A stretch of DNA of 11,794 nucleotides from Deltaproteobacteria bacterium (GTDB lineage Bacteria > Desulfobacterota > Desulfobulbia > Desulfobulbales > BM004). Shown here piece after piece: positions 1-11,794 of this stretch. The position numbers were made by a program, and so were the translations under genes. Below the pieces are notes generated by a model. The model saw only the letters and a program-made list of their open reading frames with translations. It ran no database searches and had not been told where the DNA came from. Location of the stretch: positions 1,041,465-1,053,258 of the forward strand of contig CP070776.1 in NCBI GenBank assembly GCA_020346205.1. Direction: 5' to 3'. Each line of letters begins with the position of its first letter. Positions within the stretch are counted from its first letter, which is position 1.

Positions 1-1029
1 AACGGCCAGGACTCATTCACCTATGAGATTAGCGACGGACAAGGTGGTACTGACACGGCTACCGTTACTGTCACTGTTGATCCGGTTAACGATCCGCCGG
101 TGGCAATTGATGATTCCTACTCAACTACTGCTACCGATGCAACTGCCAATGTTGTTCTGGTCATTGACACATCAGGTTCTATGGAAGGAGACCCTCTGGC
201 ATTAACCAAGACAGCTGTTGCCAACCTGATCAATACCTATGGCAATTCTCTCCAAGGTGTGATGGTTGTTGAATTTAACACCAATGCCTCTGTCCTTACC
301 AATGGTGGGAACGTCTGGATGTCTGGTCCCAATGCCATATCCCAGGTTAATGGTCTAGAAGCCGGCGGCTGGACAGATTATGACGACGCAATACAGGCAG
401 TACAAAACAATTACAATGGTGTGAATGGGACCGAAACACCACCGGACGCAGATAACACCTTTGTCTATTTCCTTTCTGACGGTGACCCAAGACCGGTTGA
501 CGATCCAGACTCCTTTGTTCAAGCAGATGACAGGGCAGCCTGGGAAACCTTCCTGAACAACGAAGATATTGACGAAGTCTATGCAGTTGGCATTGGTGAC
601 GGAGTTACCACAACTACGTATCTCGAAACAGTTGCCTGGACATCTGATGCAGGTGGAGCACCCATTGACAATGTAATAATGGTAGACACCTTTGACGACC
701 TGTCAGGAACGTTGGAATCAATTGCTCAAACTGTTTATGGCAATGTAATTACGGACGGGACCGCCAATGATTATGACCCTGATGGGGATCCAATATCCGT
801 TACCCATGTTAATGGAAATGCACTTGACGGCGACTCCTCTACCTATGACGAATTTGTTCTTGATAAAGGCACGCTTTCCATTAACGAGGTTGGTGAGTTT
901 TCATTTACGCCAAATACCAATACTACCGGAAACCAGACATTTGATTATACAATTGATGATGGTTTTGGAGGGACTGACATAGGAGTTGTCTCCATCGATA
1001 TTCTGGTTGATCCGGACCCTGAGACATAA
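1..1029 (+). CDS. C-terminal part of a large VWA-containing repeat adhesin (5' end outside window)
   Basis: The frame is open from base 1, so the gene starts upstream; 342 residues are visible. Residues 1-40 are the end of one tandem-95/cadherin-like repeat (FTYEISDGQGGTDTATV) and the start of the next (NDPPVAIDDSYSTT). A VWA domain follows at about residues 50-246 with a full metal-ion-dependent adhesion site: DTSGS at 56-60, Thr125 in GWTDYDD, and Asp160 in FLSDGD. After it comes another repeat segment (YDPDGDPISVTHVNG ... FDYTIDDGFGGTD), then stop. Such proteins are giant cell-surface adhesins exported by type I secretion; the Lap-type secretion and release genes next door support this. 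The C terminus has no GGxGxDxLx calcium-binding repeats and no recognisable type I signal, which is unusual. The GTG at 100 is only an internal codon, not a start. The neighbouring minus-strand operon is convergent with this gene. Confidence 0.85.
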   Translation, partial: NGQDSFTYEISDGQGGTDTATVTVTVDPVNDPPVAIDDSYSTTATDATANVVLVIDTSGSMEGDPLALTKTAVANLINTYGNSLQGVMVVEFNTNASVLTNGGNVWMSGPNAISQVNGLEAGGWTDYDDAIQAVQNNYNGVNGTETPPDADNTFVYFLSDGDPRPVDDPDSFVQADDRAAWETFLNNEDIDEVYAVGIGDGVTTTTYLETVAWTSDAGGAPIDNVIMVDTFDDLSGTLESIAQTVYGNVITDGTANDYDPDGDPISVTHVNGNALDGDSSTYDEFVLDKGTLSINEVGEFSFTPNTNTTGNQTFDYTIDDGFGGTDIGVVSIDILVDPDPET

Positions 1030-1040
1030 ATTATTTTATG

Positions 1041-1082
1041 AAAAAAAACCACTGCTCACATTTAAGTGGCAGCGGTTTTTTT
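1041..1082. terminator. Bidirectional intrinsic terminator after the adhesin
   Basis: An A-run and imperfect stem (ACC.CTGC.CAC) pair with GTGGCAGCGGT and a T-run, with one mismatch and one bulge. Both strands end in at least seven T after the stem. It lies 11 nt past the adhesin stop and about 100 nt past the stop of the convergent LuxR-type gene, so it can serve both. Confidence 0.75.
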
Positions 1083-1180
1083 GTTGATTAATAGCTCAAA
1101 AAATAGCCTGCATTAAAGGCAATGGGCATACATCACAAAACAAGACAAAACGTTATCAATCATGCATGAGCTATATTTCT

Positions 1181-1801
1181 TTAACCACGGTTGATTAACA
1201 ATGCCAGGTTAAGACGACTACCCGTCTTAGTTTTTTCATAAACAGAACTTAAGTGTGCTTTCACTGTGCGCTCTGTTATTTTCAAATCAGCAGCAATTTC
1301 CAGGTTTGATTGCCCATGGGCAACAAGGTTTGCAATTTCACGCTCCCTCTTTGTTAAACTTCCAAGTATTTTTTCAGAATTGGAAACCGCTTTTTCTTTT
1401 GCTCTGGCATAGGAATCGAGAATCAACCGCTGCATGACCTTCTGGCCCAACCATACAGCACCACCTGTAATGACGCGAACAGCTTCTGAAAGGCGCTCTG
1501 CCGAGATATAGGTGTTTGCGTATCCTACTATTCCCAGTTTAAGGAATGTAAGGCCTTCCTCTTCATTGGGCTCATCTGAGAGCAAAAAAATTCTGCTCAA
1601 CGGAGTTGCGCGCCGTATCTCAATAAAAATGTCTGTGTCGATAAGGGGGCGGTGAATCAAGATCAGATCAAATGTATTCTCTGAGGAGTTACTTTTTAGT
1701 TTTGCAACTGTATTGACCTGCTCGAAATCATAGTTATCCCCCAGCAGGTCCCCCCACCTTTTGATAACCGTTTCATCAGCACTGCATAAGAGAATAGCCA
1801 T
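1181..1801 (-). CDS. LuxR/NarL-type transcriptional regulator with a degenerate receiver domain
   Basis: The protein has 206 residues: an N-terminal CheY-like fold (about 1-118) and a C-terminal LuxR helix-turn-helix (about 147-205; LTKREREIANLVAHG, then ITERTVKAHLSSVYEK). The HTH looks intact and should bind DNA. The receiver lacks the phosphorylation residues: the phosphoacceptor Asp position reads LILIHRP, with His50 in its place; the acidic pocket is CSAD; the Lys position after GYA is not Lys. It is therefore probably not controlled by a standard histidine kinase (inference). The ATG lies 3 nt after the stop of the membrane fusion protein gene, so it is very probably cotranscribed as the last gene of the secretion operon. 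Its target is unknown; control of the adhesin or of the secretion genes is a reasonable guess. Confidence 0.85.
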   Translation of the reverse strand: MAILLCSADETVIKRWGDLLGDNYDFEQVNTVAKLKSNSSENTFDLILIHRPLIDTDIFIEIRRATPLSRIFLLSDEPNEEEGLTFLKLGIVGYANTYISAERLSEAVRVITGGAVWLGQKVMQRLILDSYARAKEKAVSNSEKILGSLTKREREIANLVAHGQSNLEIAADLKITERTVKAHLSSVYEKTKTGSRLNLALLINRG

Positions 1802-1804
1802 GGT

Positions 1805-3166
1805 TTACTGTTCCCTTAATGCCATGTACTTTGCTCTCAGGACTGGTTTCATAAGATAGGCTAATATTGTCTTCTCACCAGTAAGAATATCAACAGAAGC
1901 GACCATACCGGGGATAATTGGCAAAGGGTCTGATTCCGGTCCAAGATAGTTCTTGTTTGTTCTTAAACGCACCAGATAAAAACTGTTGCCTTTTTCATCT
2001 GTAATACTGTCGGCACTAATATGTTCAAGTTTGGCCTCCAGCCCGCCATAGATGGTAAAATCATAAGCTGTGAACTTTACCTTGGCTTCCTGGTTCGGTC
2101 GTAAAAATGCAATATCAGAAGGCTTGATTTTAGCCTCGATCACCAGTGTATCTTCCAGAGGAACTATTTCAACAAGATCCATGCCAGGCTGGATAACTCC
2201 GCCCACAGTATTAACGAGGAGCCTGTTGATTGTACCTGTGACCGGTGAACGTACATTTGTTCGTCTTAAACGGTCTTCCAGTGCAATTGCTGTAGCAGAT
2301 ACACCCTCAAGTTCAGCCAGAACCTCATTTAACTCGGATTTGGCTTTATTAAAGAAAGCAAGCTGGTTTTCACGGAGCTCAAACTGGGCTTCCTGGAGTT
2401 TTGATTTTGCCTTGGGAATAGACTGTTTAATCGTTTGAATATCGCCCTGCATCTGGCTGGCTTGCCGCTCAAGGTGTAAAACTTCAACTTCCGACACCGC
2501 TCCCTGAGCAATCAAGGGCCTGGTAAGTTCCAATTCCTTGTTCAAAAGGGCAAAGGTTCTGGTCAGTTCTTCAAGCTTTGAAGTTAATTCCCTGTGCTCA
2601 TGCTTCCGCTGGCTGATCTGTTCATCCAGGATATCCATGGTTGACTGGAATTCCCTTTTTCTGGATTCAAAAAGCTCCTGTTCACGCACCCCGATCTCAG
2701 GCTTTTCGTCGATTACTTCCTGCGGTACTTTAAAGTCAGTGCCATTGGCTTCAGCTAGCAGCCGGGCAGCTTTAGCTTTATAGGAGAGATATTTAACCCG
2801 GTTCTGCTTGAATGATGAGGAGAAACGCGTTTCATCAATCCGTAAGAGAAGTTGATTTTTCTTCACCAGTTCGCCAACATCAACCATGATTTCAGAAAGT
2901 ATGCCGCCTTCAAGATTTTGTACTATCTGAATCTGTGTAGAAGGAACCACCTTACCGTCACCGCGGGTCACCTGTTCAATATTAGAAAAATATGCCCAGA
3001 TCATAAACAACAGGAAGAGAACAAGAATCACCCAGAGAATTGCCCTGCCCCCTCTAGGGGTCTGAGCCAGGATAGACGTACGTATATCGGTCATCAGGTC
3101 GACTTCTTCAGCCTGCATGCGATAGAACAGTTTATTCTGCTCAGGTTTTTTCTCAGGTTCAGACAA
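1805..3166 (-). CDS. lapC: HlyD/LapC-family type I secretion membrane fusion protein
   Basis: This periplasmic adaptor links the inner-membrane ABC exporter to the outer-membrane channel. It has 453 residues: a short cytoplasmic N terminus, one transmembrane helix at about 43-60 (ILWVILVLFLLFMIWAYF), the family sequence GKVVPSTQIQIVQNLEGGIL at 71-90, a long charged coiled coil from about 120 to 300, a lipoyl/beta-barrel part (RSPVTGTINRLLVNTVGG), and the typical C-terminal ending GMVASVDILTGEKTILAYL. Length and layout are normal for the family. The start is TTG at 3166, chosen because AGGAG lies 7 nt upstream (3175-3179 on the + strand); an ATG at codon 17 is the alternative. It follows the ABC transporter gene by 14 nt. 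The lapC name rests on the linked lapB, lapD and lapG genes; the family call itself is secure. Confidence 0.93.
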   Translation of the reverse strand: MSEPEKKPEQNKLFYRMQAEEVDLMTDIRTSILAQTPRGGRAILWVILVLFLLFMIWAYFSNIEQVTRGDGKVVPSTQIQIVQNLEGGILSEIMVDVGELVKKNQLLLRIDETRFSSSFKQNRVKYLSYKAKAARLLAEANGTDFKVPQEVIDEKPEIGVREQELFESRKREFQSTMDILDEQISQRKHEHRELTSKLEELTRTFALLNKELELTRPLIAQGAVSEVEVLHLERQASQMQGDIQTIKQSIPKAKSKLQEAQFELRENQLAFFNKAKSELNEVLAELEGVSATAIALEDRLRRTNVRSPVTGTINRLLVNTVGGVIQPGMDLVEIVPLEDTLVIEAKIKPSDIAFLRPNQEAKVKFTAYDFTIYGGLEAKLEHISADSITDEKGNSFYLVRLRTNKNYLGPESDPLPIIPGMVASVDILTGEKTILAYLMKPVLRAKYMALREQ

Positions 3167-3180
3167 ACTGCAAACTCCTG

Positions 3181-5358
3181 TTAAACGTTTAACTGGCCTC
3201 TTTTCAGGGCCTCAAGAACAGATGCTTTGGGTCCATCAGCCACTACAGTACCATTATCAATAACTATTAGGCGGTCTACCATCTCAAGCAGTGAAGCCCT
3301 GTGAGTGATCAATATCACCGTTTTGTTTTCTATAGTATTGGATAGATTATCACGCAGCAATACCTCTGTCCTGTTATCCATATTGCTCGTCGGCTCGTCA
3401 AGAACAAGAACCTGAGGATCCAACAGCATTGCCCGGGACAAGGCCACACATTGTCTCTGTCCGCCTGAAAGCCCCCTTCCAAGCTCACCCACCTCCATGT
3501 CAAAACCCATGGAATGCTTTTTAACAAATTCGTTCACCCCTGTGAGTTCTGCAGCTCTTACAATGGTATTATCATCAACATCATGGGTGCCCATGGTTAT
3601 ATTATCCCTGATAGTGCCGCGGAAAAGGGTGATATCCTGCGATACATAACCGATACTCTTTCTCAGGTCAGCCGGATCTATTTGCCTTATATCTGTGCCG
3701 TCCATGCTCACCATACCGCTGAGCGGTTCGTACAAACCAAGAATTAGCTTGCCCAGGGTCGTTTTGCCAGAGCCTATGGGACCAATGACACCAACCTTTT
3801 CAGCTGGTTTTATTTTCAAGGAAATATTATTCAGGATCTTTACAGTCTGATTCGGATAGGCGAAGGATAGATTCTTAACTTCAATAGCCCCTTCAATCTC
3901 TGCCCTATGCAGAAATGACTTCCCTTCCGGCCGTTCCACCGGAAGCTCCATAATCTGATTAAGGGTCTTCAAAGCTGCCCTGGCACGATGATATCGAGTG
4001 GCAAGGCTTACAACCTGAGACATGGGGGCAATGGCCTGACGGGAAAGTATCACCAATGCTATCAAGCCACCTTGTGACAGATTGCCATTGGAGATCATGT
4101 AGACACCCACAACAACAACACCAACAACGGACATGCTTTGCACAAAAAACGAAAAATGATTCACTGAGGATGATAGGAACCTTGAACGGGCGCTCCACTT
4201 GGCAATATAGCTGACCGCTTCTTCCCAGGCTCGCTGAATCTGGCTCTCAGCGCCAAGCATCTTAATGGTCTCAAGACCGGTTAGCCCTTCCACCAGAATT
4301 GCATTTTTTTGGGATGAAGCCTGAAATGATTCCTCAACAGCTTTTTGCAGGGGAACCTGGATAAAAAAAGCATAGGCCAGAAGTAGTATGATGGAAACTA
4401 TCTGCACCAGGACAACAACTCCACCCAGATACCAGATGACCAGAAGGGCCAGAACCACAAAAGGCATATCGATCAATGCAGTTATGGAAAAAGAGGTAAT
4501 AAAATCGCGTATAGATTCAAACTCCTGCAGATTCTTTGAAAAAGAACCAATTGACTGAGGCCTTGCCTCCATGCGTAATCCAAGCACCTTTTGGAAAAGG
4601 GCTGCAGAAATTTTCAGGTTTGCCTTCTTGCCTGCCTCATCGACGAAAAAGCCCCGCAGGCCACGCATGATGACTGCAAAAACATAAATGACACTGATAC
4701 CAATGGCCAAAACCCATAAGGTTTCAAAGGCAGCATTCGGTATCACCCGATCATAAACATTTAAAACGAAAAATGGACTTGCAAGGCCAAAAACATTAAT
4801 TAAAAATGAGGCAATAAAAACATCCCTGTATATACGCCAGGACTCAAAAATTGTTCCCCAAAACCACCCTCTTTCAGAACTTGTAGGACTGATTTCCTCA
4901 ACGGTCTGTTGATCCATGCGGAATTTCGGCCGCACAAATATTCCATACCCGGTGTAGATATCTTCCAGTTCCTGCTTTGTAACGGTTTTTTCCCCCATAC
5001 CTGTTTCAGGCATCAAGATCTGTAGCTCCTGGCCTTGTTTTTCTATTGCAATAAGAATACAGGCCTTACGGTCATTCAGGAGCAGGACTACCGGGAGTTG
5101 CAGGCTGGTAATTCTCTCAAGGGGACGATGGAGGACACGGGATGACAAACCGACACGTTCTGCTGCCCTGGAAAACAGATCAACAGTGAGCCTGTTATCA
5201 ACTAAAGGCAAACCGGAGCTTAAGCTCGTTCGTGTAGCCGAACGGCCATGCAGCTTGGTAAGCTGCATGAGGCAATCCAGAAGCGGATCATCATGAGTAT
5301 CTGTATCCCCCCCAAGATTCCAGTTCCCTGGAGGGGTTTTTGCATCTTTTTCTGGCAT
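3181..5358 (-). CDS. lapB: LapB-family type I secretion ABC transporter (permease/ATPase)
   Basis: This is the inner-membrane exporter ATPase for a large adhesin, 725 residues. Residues about 22-145 form a C39-peptidase-like domain (DPLLDCLMQLTKLHGR). Cys29 is present, but the catalytic His region reads ACILIAI, so it is probably a non-cleaving substrate-docking domain. The transmembrane domain spans about 170-460. The nucleotide-binding domain has Walker A GPIGSGKT (526-533), Q-loop YVSQD (571-575), signature LSGGQ (630-634), Walker B VLVLDE (650-655) and H-loop His686. The ATG at 5358 has no strong ribosome site in front of it. It is the first gene of a three-gene unit with lapC and the LuxR-type regulator. 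Size and domain order match LapB-type exporters rather than peptidase-active bacteriocin exporters. Confidence 0.94.
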   Translation of the reverse strand: MPEKDAKTPPGNWNLGGDTDTHDDPLLDCLMQLTKLHGRSATRTSLSSGLPLVDNRLTVDLFSRAAERVGLSSRVLHRPLERITSLQLPVVLLLNDRKACILIAIEKQGQELQILMPETGMGEKTVTKQELEDIYTGYGIFVRPKFRMDQQTVEEISPTSSERGWFWGTIFESWRIYRDVFIASFLINVFGLASPFFVLNVYDRVIPNAAFETLWVLAIGISVIYVFAVIMRGLRGFFVDEAGKKANLKISAALFQKVLGLRMEARPQSIGSFSKNLQEFESIRDFITSFSITALIDMPFVVLALLVIWYLGGVVVLVQIVSIILLLAYAFFIQVPLQKAVEESFQASSQKNAILVEGLTGLETIKMLGAESQIQRAWEEAVSYIAKWSARSRFLSSSVNHFSFFVQSMSVVGVVVVGVYMISNGNLSQGGLIALVILSRQAIAPMSQVVSLATRYHRARAALKTLNQIMELPVERPEGKSFLHRAEIEGAIEVKNLSFAYPNQTVKILNNISLKIKPAEKVGVIGPIGSGKTTLGKLILGLYEPLSGMVSMDGTDIRQIDPADLRKSIGYVSQDITLFRGTIRDNITMGTHDVDDNTIVRAAELTGVNEFVKKHSMGFDMEVGELGRGLSGGQRQCVALSRAMLLDPQVLVLDEPTSNMDNRTEVLLRDNLSNTIENKTVILITHRASLLEMVDRLIVIDNGTVVADGPKASVLEALKRGQLNV

Positions 5359-5381
5359 TTATTTGCTATTCTGTTTTGAGA

Positions 5382-5409
5382 AATATATCTAAAGTGAAAC
5401 CATTTACAA
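5382..5409 (-). promoter_or_regulatory. Candidate sigma70-like promoter for the lapB-lapC-luxR operon
   Basis: Read on the minus strand: TTGTAA, a 16-nt spacer, then TATATT, ending about 24 nt upstream of the lapB ATG. It is placed sensibly in the AT-rich divergent gap (5359-5550), but hexamer matches are easy to find by chance in such sequence. Confidence 0.35.
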
Positions 5410-5484
5410 CCACACATCTTTAACTTATTAATGCGATCGGGTAAATATATTTTAGTGTAAAAATAAGGAGATGTCCATTTTTTG

Positions 5485-5513
5485 TTGGATAACACTCTAA
5501 AATAGCTTATAAA
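5485..5513 (+). promoter_or_regulatory. Candidate sigma70-like promoter for the small divergent gene
   Basis: TTGGAT (5485-5490), a 17-nt spacer and TATAAA (5508-5513) lie about 37 nt before the ATG at 5551. The spacing is ideal, but the region is AT-rich, so confidence is limited. Confidence 0.35.
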
Positions 5514-5550
5514 ATAATGTGTGATTAACTAATGCCAATGGAGCAGAACT

Positions 5551-5880
5551 ATGCTGTATATTGAAAGGGATAAGGATGGAAACATACTTGCTCTGCATAA
5601 CAAGCCAGAACCAAATGCTGGTGAGCAAAAATCCATAATGGATGAAGAAATTCTGGAGTTTCTTAACAAGAGCGTAGATACAGATCCCTGGGTGCAGCTG
5701 CTGTCACTCTCTGATATCGGGATCATCCGCATACTTGAGGACCTGATCGATCTTCTCATCCGTAAAAACGTTATTCTTTTTACGGAACTGCCGGAAGAGG
5801 CACAGGCAAAGATCAGGGAACGTAAACGGGTGCGAGAGAAAATCGACCCGGGCCATTTAATGGTTGATGATATTCTATAG
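5551..5880 (+). CDS. Small conserved protein of unknown function inside the lap cluster
   Basis: The product has 109 residues and is soluble, with no signal peptide or membrane segment. GGAG at 5540-5543 sits 7 nt before the ATG. The N terminus (MLYIERDKDGNILALHNKPEP) looks like a short beta-hairpin; the middle is helical (LSLSDIGIIRILEDLIDLLIRKN); the rest is charged (PEEAQAKIRERKRVREKI) and ends VDDIL. I recall similar short proteobacterial proteins that databases sometimes label 'tryptophan synthase subunit beta like'. Nothing visible supports TrpB function: no PLP-lysine motif, and the length is about a quarter of TrpB. It is divergent from lapB and convergent with lapD. Its role is unknown, and a link to adhesin secretion is only suggested by position. 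Confidence 0.8.
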   Translation: MLYIERDKDGNILALHNKPEPNAGEQKSIMDEEILEFLNKSVDTDPWVQLLSLSDIGIIRILEDLIDLLIRKNVILFTELPEEAQAKIRERKRVREKIDPGHLMVDDIL

Positions 5881-5938
5881 AAAGTTTTTTATTATCTTTA
5901 AGGAATTTTTCTTTCTCGTCTCTTAGATTGTTCTAGCT

Positions 5939-7909
5939 CTACTGTTTCTCTCCAAGCAAAGGCATAGGCCTTTCAACAATATATCCCTGAATTGCGTCAA
6001 GGTTGAGTTCCTTAAGCTGCTGCCATTGCTCCTCGGTCTCAACCCCTTCGGCTATAACTGTGATATCTAGGCTGTGTGCAACACTGCAGAGAGAACCAAT
6101 AAAAAATCTGCTGTCACTTTCCTTGTCTTTCAATTCACCTGTATAAGCCCTGTCAATCTTGACATAATCCGGACGCAGTGATTTCAGGTAACCCAAATGA
6201 GAAAAGCTCTGTCCATAATGATCTAGGCCTACCAGATGTTCATATTTCCTAACAACTGAACTGAACTCTTTTATCATTTCAAGATGCTGGACTGCTCCAA
6301 ACTCAGGAAATTCAAAATTAATCCGCGGAGCCTTCTCCGGTAAATTTTCAACAGCAAATAAAAGCCATCTGCGGAACGAATCATTCTGCAGCGAAGCAGG
6401 TGAAACATTAACCGCCACCCGGTCAGCGTTTAACACTGCGGAATCAATCTGCATCACATCTTCAATTACAATACGGTCAAGGTAGGAAACCAGTTGCAAA
6501 CGCTCTGCAAAAGGCATAAACACTCCTGCACTCATCAGGCTGCCATCATCCTGTATAATACGGGAGAATATCTCAAGATGAATAATCTGGTTTCTGTCAA
6601 AGGTGTTGACAACCGGCTGGGCAAACAGGGTTATGAGACGTTCCGATAAAGCCCTATCAAGTGTTTCTTTCCACTGCTGCTCTCCCAGGGGTGTTTTCTC
6701 CATTTCTTCTGTAACAATATGGACTTCCCATTTGTTGGGGCCAGCCTGCTGTGCAGACCGTAATGCCAGGTCTGCCTCTGACAATAAACGCTTTAGGGTC
6801 GTAGTGCTTTCATAACTTACTGCGCCCACATGCCCGACATTATCGGTCAATGTGAGTTGCTCCACAGCAAGTTGATTCAAGTTATTACCTACTGCCTCTG
6901 CTATTGACTCAGCATCCCATTGTGCGACATCGGGTACAAAAATGCCAAAATCACCACCGGTCAAACGGGCAAGAACAGAATTGGGATACTCTTTTGTTGT
7001 TTCCTTCAGCATAGCTCCAACCCGCTGCAGGAGTTCGTCACCTGCCTGGAACCCTTTTTGCTGGTTCAATCCCTGCAGATCATTAATCTGAACGAGCAAT
7101 ACTATACCTTTGGTTGTGCTGTCGCGCCTATCAAGCCGTGCTGTTATCTGGGTATCGAAATAACGCCTATTACCCAACCCAGTAATAGAGTCATGATAAG
7201 CATGCTTCCGTAGGCCTTCTGCGATGGTAACCTGCTCTTGAAACATCTCCTTAACTTTACTGGTCATACGGTTCATGGCTTCAACTACACGGCGCAGTTC
7301 TTTTGTCTTGGGCAAACGATCCTGGATCTCATATTTTTTCTTACACAGAGCATCCGCCTGCCGCTCAACCATAACCAGTGGCTTTAATAACACCCGTAGC
7401 CCATATCCTCCTGCAATGAGAACAACTATTCCACAGGCCAAAAACCATAGGCTCATACGGACAACATTTTCCCAGAGAGTCTTATAAGCATATCCAGGAT
7501 GACTTTTAACATAAACCATACCAGCCTGATGCCAGCCAGCCATGACATTTGCTGTTGCTTCAGGTGTTTTCAATGGAACAAAGCTGATAAACCATTGTGG
7601 TACGTTTTCAATGGAAACGTTCAGCACCCTGTCAATAAGGATATTGCCATTGGTATCCGTATATCTGACAATCCGGTAATACCCCCTGTCAAACACTGCA
7701 TTGATCATGCCTTCTATTGCCGGCATATCATTTTCAATATTGTGCTGAGATATAGATAGGCCAAGGGATGTGGCGGTATCCTGAGAATGGGATTCCAGCT
7801 GGTCTATCAAAAAGGACCTGGTGCTTTCAAGTTTTGCCAGCCAAGTACCTGTGAATAGGATAAAGAACAGGACCAGAGTGAAAATAACGAGTTGTCTGTA
7901 AAGCGTCAT
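5939..7909 (-). CDS. lapD: LapD-like c-di-GMP receptor (periplasmic sensor-HAMP-degenerate GGDEF-degenerate EAL)
   Basis: This inner-membrane receptor would bind cytosolic c-di-GMP and hold the protease LapG in the periplasm. It has 656 residues: TM1 about 7-25, a LapD/MoxY-type periplasmic domain 26-150, TM2 about 152-173, HAMP about 174-226, GGDEF about 238-398 and EAL about 415-650. The periplasmic tip contains GWHQAG with Trp126, matching the LapG-contacting Trp125 of Pseudomonas LapD, then SHPGYAY. The GGDEF site reads RLTGGDF (315-321) and is not canonical. The EAL site reads EIF (446-448), and the DDFG motif reads DHYG (563-566), losing one metal-binding Asp; QGY at 641 and AEGVE at 620 remain. 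This fits a binding-only receptor rather than an enzyme. AGGTG lies 6 nt before the ATG. It is 166 nt downstream of the lapG-like gene on the same strand. Confidence 0.93.
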   Translation of the reverse strand: MTLYRQLVIFTLVLFFILFTGTWLAKLESTRSFLIDQLESHSQDTATSLGLSISQHNIENDMPAIEGMINAVFDRGYYRIVRYTDTNGNILIDRVLNVSIENVPQWFISFVPLKTPEATANVMAGWHQAGMVYVKSHPGYAYKTLWENVVRMSLWFLACGIVVLIAGGYGLRVLLKPLVMVERQADALCKKKYEIQDRLPKTKELRRVVEAMNRMTSKVKEMFQEQVTIAEGLRKHAYHDSITGLGNRRYFDTQITARLDRRDSTTKGIVLLVQINDLQGLNQQKGFQAGDELLQRVGAMLKETTKEYPNSVLARLTGGDFGIFVPDVAQWDAESIAEAVGNNLNQLAVEQLTLTDNVGHVGAVSYESTTTLKRLLSEADLALRSAQQAGPNKWEVHIVTEEMEKTPLGEQQWKETLDRALSERLITLFAQPVVNTFDRNQIIHLEIFSRIIQDDGSLMSAGVFMPFAERLQLVSYLDRIVIEDVMQIDSAVLNADRVAVNVSPASLQNDSFRRWLLFAVENLPEKAPRINFEFPEFGAVQHLEMIKEFSSVVRKYEHLVGLDHYGQSFSHLGYLKSLRPDYVKIDRAYTGELKDKESDSRFFIGSLCSVAHSLDITVIAEGVETEEQWQQLKELNLDAIQGYIVERPMPLLGEKQ

Positions 7910-7935
7910 AATTTACACCTTGTTTTAACACAGCA

Positions 7936-7967
7936 ATTATAATTCATAAGCATCAAATACAGTACAA
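7936..7967 (-). promoter_or_regulatory. Candidate promoter for lapD
   Basis: On the minus strand a perfect TATAAT (+ strand 7936-7941) lies about 26 nt before the ATG. TTGTAC is found upstream with a long 20-nt spacer, so the -35 assignment is weak. The rest of the lapG-lapD gap (7910-8075) shows no other clear element. Confidence 0.3.
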
Positions 7968-8075
7968 TTGTTTCATTGATGCCCTACTTTCCCGGGCTGC
8001 TTAAATTTGGTTTGCATTCTCATCTAAAACCATTTTCAAAATAAAAACTGAATACTATTGTTAAAACTTACACTC

Positions 8076-8750
8076 TTATAAATCATCCTCAGACATTCTT
8101 TGTATGAGGTCCTGCCAACGCTGCAACCGGCTGCTGCTTCCAGCCAACTTTCCTCGTCCGCGCTGCTTGGCAAGCCACAAACCTGTACCGTTAAAACTAT
8201 ATATTGGGATCAGATCTGTTCTTTTTGATGCAGGCTTTATTTCTCCAACGAGATTATCCAGAACCAGGGGCTCGGCACCAGGCGCACTGAAGTATGTGAG
8301 AACCATATGGTGCACATTGTAATTAAGTGCTTTTACATATGTCAGGTTCAACTTCTCCTCATCAATCCCCATTGCCTTCAAGGTAAAATATTTTGCTATG
8401 GAAAAATCCTCGCAGTCTCCTCCCTGGGTACCCAAAAATTCAATAGGTGTTGCCCAGTAATCCTTTTCGCCCCAATGGATAGTATCATCAACAAATTCCA
8501 TCTGGTTAAAAAAATCATTCACCCGCTCGAGTTTCTCTAAATCAGTCTGACTGGTATCCTGGATTATGATTTCTTCCCAGGCAACAAGGAGAGAACGTGC
8601 GTCCTTACCATATTTAGATTCAGCTTTATTTAATAGTTCAGAGCTGAGTTGAAAATTCTCGCCGGTAATGATGGGTGCAATACCAATCAGAAACGAAAAA
8701 AAAACGATGAAAAGAAAAAAATATTCTATTTTATCAGTTTGTTTGAACAC
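8076..8750 (-). CDS. lapG: LapG-like periplasmic calcium-dependent cysteine protease (transglutaminase-like, C93 family)
   Basis: Enzymes of this family cut the N-terminal retention module of LapA-type adhesins and so release the adhesin from the cell. The protein has 224 residues. A hydrophobic stretch at 10-28 is a signal peptide or anchor. The triad is visible: Cys113 in QGGDCEDF, His148 in HHMVLTY and Asp165 in LVLDN. The His-Asp spacing of 17 equals that recalled for Pseudomonas LapG. The acidic residues flanking the cysteine (Asp112, Glu114) match the family's calcium site. The start is GTG at 8750; an in-frame TGA lies a few codons upstream, and the only other N-terminal option is a rare ATT. 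No good ribosome site is seen. Its partner, the LapD-like receptor, is the next gene. Confidence 0.93.
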   Translation of the reverse strand: MFKQTDKIEYFFLFIVFFSFLIGIAPIITGENFQLSSELLNKAESKYGKDARSLLVAWEEIIIQDTSQTDLEKLERVNDFFNQMEFVDDTIHWGEKDYWATPIEFLGTQGGDCEDFSIAKYFTLKAMGIDEEKLNLTYVKALNYNVHHMVLTYFSAPGAEPLVLDNLVGEIKPASKRTDLIPIYSFNGTGLWLAKQRGRGKLAGSSSRLQRWQDLIQRMSEDDL

Positions 8751-8780
8751 AATGGCTGAATAACAGAAAGATCATTTAAT

Positions 8781-8790
8781 GGGTATACCC
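8781..8790. repeat. Perfect palindrome GGGTATACCC upstream of lapG
   Basis: A 10-bp perfect palindrome lies 30 nt upstream of the GTG start of the LapG-like gene. It could be an operator half-site cluster or chance. No second copy was noticed in the window. Confidence 0.3.
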
Positions 8791-8835
8791 CCTCTTAATA
8801 ATGGTTAGGGCAGGAGGGAGTGGTTGTAAAATAAA

Positions 8836-8865
8836 AATGGGGTAGCAAAAACTTGCTACCCCATT
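8836..8865 (-). terminator. Intrinsic terminator of the TolC/LapE-like gene
   Basis: There is a perfect 13-bp stem (AATGGGGTAGCAA with TTGCTACCCCATT) and a 4-nt loop. On the minus strand it is followed by a T-rich tract. It lies about 40 nt past the stop of the channel gene and separates it from the lapG-like gene. Confidence 0.85.
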
Positions 8866-8906
8866 CTAACAATTTAGAGCTTGATTAAGCAACAATCTAA
8901 AGTGCC

Positions 8907-10277
8907 TTAGGAATCATTGGAGCGATTACCCATTAGGGCAGCTGATTTATCTTCTTTGGGTGTTTCCTCCTTCTCCTCTTCTTCGACCTTGCTTTCTTCC
9001 GGCCACTGCAGTCCCAATGTATGAACGAGCTTACCTATGCCGCTTAAAACCCTGTATTGTGCATAAACTCTGTCATACTGTGAATTGACCAGATCAATCT
9101 TGGCATTAATCAGTTCCGCTTCAATATCCAGAACATCAAACATGGTCCTCCTGCCTATATTCCACTGTTTGGAAAACGCTTCTGCAGTAAGACCAGTTGA
9201 TTTTACATAACTTTGAAGATAGGTAATTCTGTTTTGAGCTGATTGATAGGCTACCCAAGAGAGGCGGATGGATTCAATAATCTGCCTGTGTGTGTTATTC
9301 TTAATCTCTCGTGCCTCACTGATAAGCTGACTTGTTTCTGCGATACGTGCTTTATCTCTGAAACCATTGAAAATATTAAAACGCACCAGGGCAATGGCAG
9401 AGAGTTCCTCCTGACGTCCTGGGATATCAACATCTTCCTCCCATGACTGGTCAACTGCAAGATCTAAGGTGGGATAGTAATTACTTTTGGCAACAACGTG
9501 CTGAGCTTCACGGGCCTTCAAATCAGCCTGAGCGGATTTGAGGATAGGATAATTATTCAGGGCAAGCTGCTGGGCCTCTTCCATGGACACAGGCATGACG
9601 GTGTCAACAGGATGGGGCTTAACCAGATCAACCGGTACATGTCCAACCACAAACTGGTAGTCAGTCTGTGCATCTGCCACATTTGCCTCTGAGATAACCA
9701 CATCTGACTCTGCCAGGGCCAGACGCCCCATGACCTGGTCTAGGTCTGCTCTTCGGTCCAGGCCTGATTCACTTCTAAGTTTTATCTGGTCATAGATACG
9801 TTGGTGCGTGGTCACATTTTCTTTGGCAAGTTCCAAAATCTCTAGCTGGCGTAGAACATTTAAATACACTCTTGAGGTCACCAGACCTATATTCTCAGAA
9901 GTACCCTGCAGCAAATATGCAGCAGAATTGACACGCGCTTTCTGCCTCTTTATTTCATACTGGTCAGCAAATCCACGAAAAACATTTTGCCTAAGACCAA
10001 TAATTGCAGATTGCGGATGGGTCGTATCATCAAAGGGCTCCCTCTGGTCTTCAACACCGGCCCCATATGAAACATCAATGATCGGCCAGTATCCTGCCCT
10101 TGCCTGAGTGATCTCCTGGTCCCGTGCCAGACGATTATAAGCCAATGATTTAATTTCCGGGTTTGTTTGCAGCATGAGTTGAACAGCATCCTGCAAAGTT
10201 TCAGCCTGGGCGTATCCGGATCCAAAAATTAGGGCTCCAATAACAAATACGCCCAAATACCTGAATGTTGATTTCAT
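8907..10277 (-). CDS. lapE: TolC/LapE-family outer-membrane channel for type I secretion
   Basis: This outer-membrane channel would complete the exporter with LapB and LapC. It has 456 residues. The signal peptide is MKSTFRYLGVFVIGALIF followed by GSGYAQA, with likely cleavage after AQA. Two outer-membrane efflux repeats follow (ETLQDAVQLMLQTNPEIKSLAYN near the start; MEEAQQLALNNYPILKSAQADLKAREAQ in the middle), with long amphipathic helices. RRTMFDVLDIEAELINAKIDL and YRVLSGIGKLVHTLGL are typical family sequence. The acidic, lysine-rich C terminus (EEEKEETPKEDKS) is low-complexity. I chose the ATG at 10277 because GGGAGG lies 7 nt upstream (10285-10290 on the + strand) and the signal peptide begins there; an ATG five codons further out (10292) overlaps that site. 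The lapE symbol is by context; other TolC roles cannot be excluded. Confidence 0.92.
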   Translation of the reverse strand: MKSTFRYLGVFVIGALIFGSGYAQAETLQDAVQLMLQTNPEIKSLAYNRLARDQEITQARAGYWPIIDVSYGAGVEDQREPFDDTTHPQSAIIGLRQNVFRGFADQYEIKRQKARVNSAAYLLQGTSENIGLVTSRVYLNVLRQLEILELAKENVTTHQRIYDQIKLRSESGLDRRADLDQVMGRLALAESDVVISEANVADAQTDYQFVVGHVPVDLVKPHPVDTVMPVSMEEAQQLALNNYPILKSAQADLKAREAQHVVAKSNYYPTLDLAVDQSWEEDVDIPGRQEELSAIALVRFNIFNGFRDKARIAETSQLISEAREIKNNTHRQIIESIRLSWVAYQSAQNRITYLQSYVKSTGLTAEAFSKQWNIGRRTMFDVLDIEAELINAKIDLVNSQYDRVYAQYRVLSGIGKLVHTLGLQWPEESKVEEEEKEETPKEDKSAALMGNRSNDS

Positions 10278-10432
10278 TCGAGTGCCTCCCATCGTCAGAT
10301 AATCGAATCTTTTTTTTAAAATAGAGATTTTAGGCCAAATTTATTTTAGTAATTTCAATAAACATGCAAACCAAATACAACATCACAAAACTTATAAAAT
10401 TTATCATATATATTTAATATTCTCAATAACTT

Positions 10433-10447
10433 TTATGAGTCCCATAA
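10433..10447. repeat. Small inverted repeat TTATG-N5-CATAA
   Basis: A five-base perfect inverted repeat, extendable by a wobble pair and one more pair, sits in the middle of the divergent intergenic region. It has the size of a dimeric-regulator operator, but no family is recognised. Confidence 0.25.
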
Positions 10448-10537
10448 GAAACAATACCTGTCCATTTCTGTTATAAAACATGTTAATACTGTCTCATTTT
10501 AGTTAGCATATATATAAATTTATCTTCCAAAATAAAA

Positions 10538-10566
10538 TTGGTTATATTTATATCAATGCATAATAT
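10538..10566 (+). promoter_or_regulatory. Candidate sigma70-like promoter for the selenoprotein gene
   Basis: TTGGTT (10538-10543), a 17-nt spacer and TAATAT (10561-10566) lie about 38 nt before the ATG at 10605. The spacing is ideal and it would give a short leader. The match is moderate in AT-rich sequence. Confidence 0.4.
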
Positions 10567-10604
10567 CCTTCATATAGATCAATTTCTGTAATTCTGAGTT
10601 GCAT

Positions 10605-11201
10605 ATGAAAAACCAGAAAACGACCCTTGAGATATACTCAGATTATGTCTGACCATTTTGTTGGCTGGCGGAGCCTGCCATTACAGAATTCGCCAGAACA
10701 GAACCGCGCATTAATATTCACTGGAAAGCATTTGAACTCAGACCGCATCCGGTTCCAACCTTAGACCCCAATGGTGACTACTTGACCAGCGCATGGCAGG
10801 AACATGTTTATCCACTGGCAGAAAAAATGGGCTTCACAATGCATAAACCACCGGTGCAGCCCCGAACCAGGCTTGCGCATGCTTTTGCCAAATGGGCTGC
10901 AGACAATGGTAAATTTAATGAATTCAACAATGCACTTTTCAAGGCCTTTTTTCAGGCCGGACGCGATATTGGTAATATTGAAATTCTTGTTCAGACAGCC
11001 GAAGAACTTGGCATGGATGTAAATGCATTTGAATATGAATCGCAAATGGACTCATATGTACAACAGGTACTTCAGGATGAAAAAATGGCTAGGCAGATTA
11101 ATGTCAGGGCAGTTCCTGCTTATGTGGTAAACGACAAAGTCATTGCTGCAGGCGTTCAGAGTCTGAGTCAATTACAGCATTTGATAGCCCTGAATCAATA
11201 G
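10605..11201 (+). CDS. DsbA-family thiol:disulfide oxidoreductase, probable selenoprotein (Sec16 encoded by TGA)
   Basis: The frame runs from ATG 10605 to TAG 11199-11201 with one in-frame TGA at 10650-10652 (codon 16). Translated through, the N terminus reads LEIYSDYV-U-PFCWLAEP, so Sec16 replaces the first Cys of the thioredoxin-fold CPFC active site and Cys19 is kept. Both sides of the TGA are clearly one protein: a beta strand and redox motif, then IHWKAFELRPHPVPTLDPNG, an all-helical insert (WQEHVYPLAEKMG; FKAFFQAGRDIG), and the cis-proline loop RAVPAYV. Total length is 198 residues, normal for cytosolic FrnE/DsbA-like proteins; no signal peptide is seen. The ribosome site is weak (TGAG at 10595-10598). 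Without Sec the product is a 15-residue peptide, or an internally started 139-residue fragment from 10782 lacking the active site. The alternative is a recent nonsense mutation or sequencing error. The DUF2914 gene follows after 52 nt and is possibly cotranscribed. Confidence 0.82.
10650..10680 (+). promoter_or_regulatory. Candidate bacterial SECIS element directing Sec insertion at TGA 10650-10652
   Basis: Nine bases after the TGA a hairpin begins: TGGC (10662-10665) pairs with GCCA (10677-10680), a T.T mismatch follows, then GGC (10667-10669) pairs with GCC (10673-10675), closing a GGA loop. The loop starts 17 nt after the TGA and its first two bases are G. This agrees with my recollection of the bacterial SECIS rules (loop about 16-37 nt after the UGA, a G in the first two loop positions). 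An alternative fold, GGCT/AGCC with loop GGCGG, also starts its loop with G. The hairpin is within coding sequence, as expected in bacteria. Confidence 0.65.
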
Positions 11202-11253
11202 TTACCTGCATAGGGAGTAAATTTTAAATATAAAATTGTTCAGGAGGTCCACC

Positions 11254-11664
11254 ATGAAATTACGACTTGTTATTTCGAGTATTATTACATTCATGATCCT
11301 TTCACTTTGTTTCTTTTCCCAAGCTTCCTCAATGGATGACCCGGGATTTATGATTAAGCGTATGGTCATGAGTGAAGAAATTGCAGACAAAGAGCCCTTT
11401 GCCATAGGTGACACATTTTCTGCTGACACAGAAAAAGTTTACTGTTTTCTTGAGGCAAGAGAGATTGAAAACGACACCACGGTCAGTTTTGTCTGGTATT
11501 TAGAAGATGAAGAAATGGCTAGGGTAACGCTGCCACTAGTGAAAGGTATGCGATGGAGAACTTACTCCAGTAAGAAGCTTGCCGGCCGAAAAGGTAACTG
11601 GAAGGTAGAACTGCAAGAGTCCTCAGGCATTGTATTACATTCAGTTTCTTTCCAGGTTCAATAA
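11254..11664 (+). CDS. Secreted DUF2914-domain protein
   Basis: The product has 136 residues. The ATG at 11254 is chosen because AGGAGGT (11242-11248) lies 5 nt upstream; a TTG at 11236 in the same frame lies before that site and is unlikely. An N-terminal signal peptide (hydrophobic core LVISSIITFMILSLCFF, likely cleavage near SQASS) sends it to the periplasm. The remainder matches my memory of DUF2914: VYCFLEAREIENDTTVSFVWYL, then GMRWRTYSSKKL, then GNWKVELQESSG at the end. The domain looks like a small beta-sandwich; its function is not established. It lies 52 nt after the selenoprotein gene on the same strand and ends at a strong terminator, so the two may form one unit. Confidence 0.85.
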   Translation: MKLRLVISSIITFMILSLCFFSQASSMDDPGFMIKRMVMSEEIADKEPFAIGDTFSADTEKVYCFLEAREIENDTTVSFVWYLEDEEMARVTLPLVKGMRWRTYSSKKLAGRKGNWKVELQESSGIVLHSVSFQVQ

Positions 11665-11699
11665 AAAATCCCCTCCAGAAATAAAATGGAGGGGATTTT
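11665..11699. terminator. Strong bidirectional intrinsic terminator
   Basis: There is a perfect 13-bp stem (AAAATCCCCTCCA with TGGAGGGGATTTT) and a 9-nt loop, directly after the DUF2914 stop. It is symmetric, with A/T tracts at both ends, and lies between that gene and the convergent cytochrome gene, so it can serve both. Confidence 0.9.
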
Positions 11700-11717
11700 A
11701 ATTTAATACTTTTTGGG

Positions 11718-11794
11718 CTATTTGCCGTAACCCGGAACCTTTTGAGCCCCCAGTGACTTGACATAACTCGCTAGTTCCTGCATTTCAGTGGATT
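11718..11794 (-). CDS. C-terminal tip of a probable c-type cytochrome (5' part outside window)
   Basis: On the minus strand 25 codons are visible before the TAG at 11718-11720: STEMQELASYVKSLGAQKV, then PGYGK. The pattern STEM..LA.YV.SLG is typical of the C-terminal helix of class I cytochromes c. The CxxCH heme site would lie beyond the right edge, so the identification rests on the helix alone. It is convergent with the DUF2914 gene. Confidence 0.6.
   Translation of the reverse strand, partial: STEMQELASYVKSLGAQKVPGYGK

What the first reader, a model, noticed from the sequence alone, without database searches (positions are those of the whole stretch)
10605..11201. Probable unannotated selenoprotein: DsbA-family enzyme with U-P-F-C active site
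The sequence shows a single in-frame TGA at codon 16, in the exact place of the first Cys of the DsbA/FrnE-type CPFC motif (IYSDYV-TGA-PFCWLAEP). The rest of the 198-codon frame is intact and conserved in pattern, with no other damage. Sec replacing the attacking Cys of a CxxC redox motif is the classic signature of bacterial thioredoxin-fold selenoproteins. Sec-containing DsbA-like proteins are known in bacterial selenoproteomes to my memory; whether this subgroup with FELRPxPxPTLxPxG has been described with Sec I cannot say. Standard annotation would start at 10782 and lose the catalytic site.
Basis: partly seen in the sequence, partly recalled or inferred. Interest (0 to 1): 0.88.

Follow-up and report, generated by a model that had tools for sequence, protein, structure and literature searches.

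The report
Selenocysteine-containing DsbA/FrnE-like redox enzyme
A gene that standard software cuts short because of an internal UGA codon very probably encodes a selenium-containing disulfide-exchange enzyme, one more member of a kind already known in bacteria.

Summary
Window 10605-11201 (+) is a 198-codon frame with one in-frame TGA, at codon 16, where DsbA/FrnE enzymes carry the first Cys of CPFC. The selenoprotein reading is well supported. TGA is at this codon in 12 of 12 order-level relatives whose match covers it and in 3 of 4 Acidobacteriota hits. Codons on both sides are under coding constraint. A bacterial-type SECIS hairpin can form after it, with synonymous codons fixed against the genes' own usage. 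No whole genome is held for the window, but its genes match a Desulfobulbaceae MAG (G001) in order and at 69-90% identity. G001 has SelA, SelB and tRNA-Sec(UCA). Of 15 genomes with a TGA form, 14 have SelB and 13 SelA. A TGA=Trp code or a pseudogene fits poorly. UxxC DsbA-like selenoproteins have been in print since 2005, so this is a new member of a known kind. Less ordinary: the 52-row clade holding the window has no Cys row, and 98 of 119 listed database relatives start after the active-site codon. Sec insertion itself was not shown.

The parts
10605..11201 (+). CDS of DsbA/FrnE-like selenoprotein, 198 aa, Sec predicted at residue 16
   Evidence: PF01323 E 1.3e-32; AlphaFold model pLDDT 93.5, best PDB match FrnE 5cp1; TGA conserved in relatives
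10650..10652 (+). in-frame TGA, predicted Sec codon (first position of U-P-F-C)
   Evidence: TGA in 12 of 12 order-level relatives covering the codon
10655..10689 (+). predicted bacterial SECIS hairpin, apical loop GGA at 10670-10672
   Evidence: 41 nt: MFE -14.2 kcal/mol, z -2.86; synonymous-shuffle fraction 0.078; fixed CTG-GCG-GAG codons. In 51- and 81-nt pieces another hairpin is the MFE
10659..10661 (+). codon 19, TGT: presumed resolving Cys, the only Cys in the protein
   Evidence: sequence
10782..11201 (+). truncated frame found by ordinary ORF calling (139 aa, TTG start), lacking the active site
   Evidence: P0004
11254..11664 (+). DUF2914 protein, next gene downstream on the same strand; adjacency kept in L001, L077 and L089
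   Evidence: PF11141 E 8.2e-17; tblastn synteny

Best explanation
The gene encodes a cytoplasmic DsbA-superfamily (FrnE-like) thiol/selenol-disulfide oxidoreductase. UGA 10650 is decoded as selenocysteine by SelB and tRNA-Sec with the help of the hairpin directly downstream. Sec16 attacks substrate disulfides, Cys19 resolves, and the loop at Pro171 binds substrate. Shown by computation: the frame, the predicted fold, the conserved TGA, coding constraint, a possible hairpin with codon bias, and Sec machinery in relatives. Inferred: Sec incorporation, cytoplasmic location (no signal peptide apparent by eye; no predictor was run), reductase/isomerase direction, the roles of Sec16, Cys19 and Pro171, and recharging by an outside thiol system, since the protein has no C-terminal CXXXXC like that of Deinococcus FrnE.
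For: TGA at the same codon: 12 of 12 order-level relatives whose match covers it (13 of 257 genomes hit, codons), 3 of 4 hits among 396 Acidobacteriota genomes, 6 of 7 distant FrnE-like hits in the phylum. dN below dS between TGA and TTG10782 (0.135/0.37 against L005; 0.14/0.94 against L006). Ala+6 GCG 14/14 and Glu+7 GAG 16/16, against 46/279 and 65/185 in the rest of these genes. Folding energy under the synonymous mean in 15 of 16. SelA, SelB and tRNA-Sec in G001, whose locus is syntenic with the window. Of the 15 genomes with a TGA form, SelB in 14 and SelA in 13. Of 119 database relatives, 50 begin exactly at residue 21 and 3 read W at residue 16, as expected of TGA genes called by ordinary pipelines; P0021 and P0005 of the 50 lie at or next to zero distance from TGA loci L007 and L006. 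AlphaFold pLDDT 93.5, five best PDB matches Deinococcus FrnE, TM 0.79-0.85.
Against: No whole genome is held for the window. The window's hairpin is not significant alone in the synonymous test (0.078), and in longer pieces (51 and 81 nt) a different hairpin is the predicted minimum. L067 folds worse than its synonymous mean, and one Cys homologue (L003) also folds well (0.019) and has the same GCG-GAG codons. A three-sequence alifold gave 0 double changes. Rfam gave no match in the window. Of the six family genomes with the TGA gene, tRNA-Sec passed the cut-off in only two (G001, G007), and G007 gave neither SelA nor SelB and G005 no SelA; these assemblies are 1.6-4.0 Mb and fragmented. SelB is also present in both genomes with the Cys form (G309, G310), so SelB does not separate the two forms. 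The syntenic copy in G002 is decayed although that genome keeps the machinery.
Confidence: 0.95

Rival explanations
1. The lineage uses a variant code in which TGA is a sense codon (for example Trp), so the residue is W.
For: Three database proteins (P0002, P0003, P0019) print W here; none of the ten window genes (one of them partial) ends in TGA.
Against: The ten window genes use 44 TGG and no other in-frame TGA. TGA terminates the same gene in relatives L006, L007, L008, L068, L069 and L075. The position is Cys in homologues. SelB and tRNA-Sec are present in relatives.
Confidence: 0.02
2. Pseudogene or sequencing error: the TGA is a nonsense mutation of TGC/TGT and only a fragment is made.
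For: The syntenic G002 copy is decayed (N-terminus missing, frame broken, a TAG inside), so the gene can be lost.
Against: TGA recurs at this codon in genomes of two phyla, with coding constraint on both sides, and the window copy has no other damage.
Confidence: 0.02
3. UGA works as a stop here and the functional product is the 139-aa fragment from TTG10782.
For: That frame is the one ordinary calling gives.
Against: The fragment lacks the first strand, the active site and the first helices of the thioredoxin fold (model); codons 17-59 are under coding constraint.
Confidence: 0.01

Closest known systems
DsbA-like selenoprotein family (Sargasso 'DsbA-like', COG2761; GOS 'DsbA 1', pfam01323, UxxC; 'DsbA-like protein form 1', NIP15863.1)
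   Same: pfam01323 or COG2761 and a UxxC motif; for the Sargasso set also a SECIS-like hairpin just downstream (PMC1088965, PMC2398784, PMC13188914: passages seen)
FrnE of Deinococcus radiodurans (DR_0659; PDB 5cp1, 5cnw)
   Same: Best sequence match in the PDB (E 1.1e-17) and best fold match; N-terminal CP(W/F)C site (PMC8945050, passages)
   Different: Cys in place of Sec; carries a C-terminal CXXXXC (same passages) that the window protein lacks
Cys homologues in Pyrinomonadaceae (L002, L003) and Geobacter sp. DSM 9736 (P0030)
   Same: 48-49% identity over most of the length, same motif context
   Different: TGC in the two loci and C in P0030 at the Sec position
Sec-containing FrnE of green algae (Mamiellophyceae)
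   Same: FrnE with Sec (PMC6627142, one passage seen)
   Different: Eukaryotic; not compared by sequence

Membership tests
DsbA-like UxxC selenoprotein (PF01323) | PF01323 domain over the frame | tested here: met
   113.6 bits against cut-off 25.6, residues 7-194
DsbA-like UxxC selenoprotein (PF01323) | in-frame TGA at the first position of the CxxC, with Cys homologues | tested here: met
DsbA-like UxxC selenoprotein (PF01323) | bacterial SECIS: hairpin just after UGA, small apical loop with G | tested here: met
   codon bias is the stronger support; energies are modest and longer pieces of the window fold otherwise
DsbA-like UxxC selenoprotein (PF01323) | Sec machinery in the same genome | tested here: inconclusive
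   own genome not held; present in the syntenic relative G001 and most other TGA-form genomes
DsbA-like UxxC selenoprotein (PF01323) | Sec actually in the protein | not testable with these tools
   needs mass spectrometry or 75Se
DsbA-like UxxC selenoprotein (PF01323) | close sequence relation to the published representatives | not tested
   those sequences were not fetched
FrnE subfamily | FrnE fold | tested here: met
   predicted model, TM by query length 0.79-0.85 to five D. radiodurans FrnE structures
FrnE subfamily | C-terminal CXXXXC (present in many, not all, per PMC8945050 passages) | tested here: not met
   the only Cys is C19

The most novel reading that the evidence does not exclude
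The Desulfobulbales-centred clade is an obligate-Sec DsbA lineage: an old, clade-wide selenoenzyme in which Cys does not replace Sec, with its SECIS built into the conserved W-L-A-E-P codons. Gene callers cut off its active site in many database copies, so it may have escaped description as a group.
Probability: 0.3. Interest if true: 0.45.

Novelty: new member of a known kind. Interest (0 to 1): 0.3.

Why it matters
It adds a well-supported selenoenzyme subgroup centred on Desulfobulbales and shows that many database copies are cut off past the active site, so that their catalytic residue cannot be seen in annotation. A clade in which only Sec was seen, next to Cys-bearing cousins, is a usable natural comparison of why Sec is retained.

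Tried and rejected
Rfam over the window at E <= 1: no match. tRNA scan of the window: none. Promoter and terminator patterns at 10280-11794: three promoter-like sites, all on the - strand and fewer than in shuffles (mean 4.4); no terminator-like site. One search used a file that held all proteins as query, so its codon positions were wrong; it is discarded and replaced. RNAalifold on three of the 16 TGA sequences gave no double changes and is too small to decide anything. The Rfam tRNA-Sec score alone is not specific (rings in 14 of 14 controls, over the cut-off in 5), so anticodons were checked. Literature: the listings showed no title on this subgroup; (selenoprotein with Desulfobulbaceae) listed two papers, neither opened; PMC8318568 on deltaproteobacterial selenoproteins has no 'DsbA' in its main text (passages). 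The library lacks most subscription journals, so this is weak. Considered and set aside: variant code, pseudogene, fragment as product (see rivals).

Full report
What is there. Window 10605-11201 on the + strand is one frame of 198 codons interrupted only by TGA at 10650-10652. With that codon read as a residue, PF01323 (DSBA) covers residues 7-194 at E 1.3e-32. The AlphaFold model from a 39-row alignment has mean pLDDT 93.5 and pTM 0.90. Its five best PDB matches are Deinococcus radiodurans FrnE, TM by query length 0.79-0.85; FrnE is also the best PDB match by sequence, E 1.1e-17. Residue 16 is the first position of the C-P-F-C motif of the homologues, Cys19 is the second and the only Cys in the protein. 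Pro171, probably the cis-Pro opposite the active site (inference), is invariant in the 39-row alignment.

Whose it is. No whole genome is held for the window. By tblastn, nine of ten window genes have their counterpart in the same neighbourhood of L001, a contig of an uncultured Desulfobulbaceae MAG (genome G001), at 69-90% protein identity; the tenth, the partial first gene, gave no hit at 1e-5 there, where the locus ends about 620 bases past the last shared gene. The tolC - dsbA - DUF2914 order also occurs in L077 (G008) and, with a decayed dsbA, in L089 (G002). In the other 11 neighbourhoods fetched (L078-L088) no DUF2914 match was found. The window is therefore from a close relative of G001 (inference from synteny).

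Is the TGA conserved. A protein search gave 136 hits, 120 listed. Leaving out P0004, the window's own truncated product, 119 were classified: 18 have Cys at residue 16, 3 have W, 50 start exactly at residue 21, and 48 start later; contig ends may explain some of the last. In genomes, the order of G001 gave 13 hits in 257 genomes at E <= 1e-25. In 12 of these codon 16 is covered and is TGA in all 12; the 13th (G002) has lost that part. One of the 12 (L072, G311) has a second TGA 66 codons on and may be damaged; two (L009, L010) run off their contigs. The phylum of G309 (Acidobacteriota, from the record of L002) gave 4 hits in 396 genomes at E <= 1e-40, 3 with TGA and 1 with Cys (codons). The phylum of G001 gave 8 hits in 297 genomes at E <= 1e-20: G001 itself and seven distant FrnE-like genes (26-32% identity), six of them TGA at the same codon and one TGT. 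The two Cys loci L002 and L003 came from a search with a Cys-bearing pattern, so they do not measure how common Cys is.

Tree. In a tree of 110 rows (22 loci and the database proteins of at least 165 aa; three partial loci, one duplicate and the shorter proteins were left out) the window lies in a 52-row clade (support 100/99) made of 10 loci with TGA, 2 proteins read as W, 40 truncated proteins and no Cys row. Outside it TGA and Cys rows mix. The bootstrap had not settled, and for the 40 truncated rows the TGA is inferred; two of them, P0021 and P0005, lie at or next to zero distance from loci whose DNA has TGA (L007, L006).

Selection. NG86 estimates for the 43 codons between the TGA and TTG10782: dN 0.135 and dS 0.37 (window/L005), 0.14 and 0.94 (window/L006), 0.16 and 1.05 (L005/L006). 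That stretch is translated, which the annotated 139-aa product does not allow. dS there is lower than downstream for L005 (0.37 against 1.67) but not for L006 (0.94 against 0.95). The nine codons compared before the TGA are too few for an estimate of their own: no amino-acid change against L005, dN 0.05 and dS 1.29 against L006.

SECIS. The 41 nt from the TGA fold to -14.2 kcal/mol, z -2.86, with a GGA apical loop 18-20 nt after the UGA; but when 51 or 81 nt are folded another hairpin is the predicted minimum. Against 1000 synonymous versions, 15 of 16 TGA genes fold better than the mean and 6 of 16 reach 0.05; the window is at 0.078. Of the two distinct Cys genes in this group, one is at 0.019 and one at about 0.25. 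Codon use is the stronger sign: Ala+6 is GCG in 14 of 14 genes that have Ala there (downstream in the 16 genes GCG is 46 of 279 Ala), and Glu+7 is GAG in 16 of 16 (downstream 65 of 185); in the window gene all 11 Glu counted downstream are GAA. In L075 and L076, where Ala is replaced by Gly, a hairpin is kept in another register, GGCUC-GGC-GAGCC. The genes are related, so these counts are not independent, and the Cys gene L003 has the same GCG-GAG. The description of bacterial SECIS (small apical loop containing G) is from PMC1088965, passages seen.

Machinery. In the 12 genomes of G001's family: SelA above cut-off in 10, SelB in 11, tRNA-Sec above cut-off in 6, those six confirmed as anticodon TCA by ARAGORN. 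G001 and G002 have all three. Of the six family genomes with the TGA gene, SelB was found in five, SelA in four and tRNA-Sec in two; G007 has tRNA-Sec and the TGA gene but no SelA or SelB match. The assemblies are 1.6-4.0 Mb and fragmented. The nine other genomes with a TGA form (six of the order, three Acidobacteriota) all have SelA and SelB above cut-off, 9 of 9 each; tRNA-Sec was not searched there. The two genomes with the Cys form, G309 and G310, also have SelB (2 of 2, one match partial), so SelB does not tell the two forms apart.

Other readings. A TGA=Trp code does not fit: ten window genes use 44 TGG and no other in-frame TGA, and TGA ends the same gene in six relatives (L006, L007, L008, L068, L069, L075). 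None of the window genes ends in TGA, which is neutral. A chance nonsense mutation does not fit the recurrence.

What is known. UxxC DsbA-like selenoproteins were reported in the Sargasso Sea set (9 sequences, COG2761; PMC1088965), in a 2006 survey (4 in its table; PMC1794560), as 63 'DsbA 1' in GOS (PMC2398784), in a 2016 survey (table figures 41 and 45, which I take to be organisms and genes; PMC5029168), in a 2022 review (PMC9312934) and as 'DsbA-like protein form 1' in a 2026 review (PMC13188914). Green algae have a Sec FrnE (PMC6627142). All were seen as passages found by term, not in full. The finding is therefore a new member of a known kind. Whether this subgroup is among the published sequences was not tested.

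How it works, most likely. Sec16 does the nucleophilic attack on substrate disulfides and Cys19 resolves, in the cytoplasm (inference). D. radiodurans FrnE is described as a cytoplasmic disulfide reductase with isomerase and insulin-reduction activity in vitro, its active site thought to be regenerated through a C-terminal CXXXXC (PMC8945050, passages). The window protein lacks that motif, so an outside thiol system would have to recharge it (inference).

Noticed in passing
L012, L014-L019 (for example L014:1021-1884, TGA at 1450; L018:400-1263, TGA at 829): A second DsbA/DsbG-like gene in the same bacterial family carries TGA at the first position of its CxxC (SDFQ-TGA-PYC or SDYQ-TGA-PYC) in 7 of 7 loci looked at; in the two read in full it has a signal-like N-terminus (by eye) and an extra N-terminal stretch. 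Best NCBIfam match is NF041057 Rcas_1661 family (seleno)lipoprotein, well below cut-off (73.7 and 77.2 bits against 190).
   Followed up: partly
L089:5677-6146 (G002): The syntenic dsbA copy has decayed: N-terminal part with the Sec codon absent, frame broken and a TAG inside, while tolC and DUF2914 on either side match over nearly their full length and the genome keeps selA, selB and tRNA-Sec.
   Followed up: partly
window 1-10292: A Lap-type adhesin secretion and release set: end of a VWA/repeat protein, LuxR-type regulator, HlyD, C39-like ABC transporter, LapD-type GGDEF-EAL protein, LapG-like C93 protease, TolC-type protein (Pfam; the VWA reading is by eye, and the Lap naming of the set is recalled).
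   Followed up: partly
window 5551-5880: 109-aa protein conserved in L001 (86%) and L089 (74%) inside the Lap-like set, with no Pfam match.
   Followed up: no
L020-L022, L024-L026: Distant FrnE-like genes (26-32% identity) in the phylum also have TGA at the same codon, followed by differently shaped predicted hairpins.
   Followed up: partly
G504 and G505: Each has a second, partial SelB match above cut-off (positions 2-352 and 2-357 of 581) besides a full-length one.
   Followed up: no
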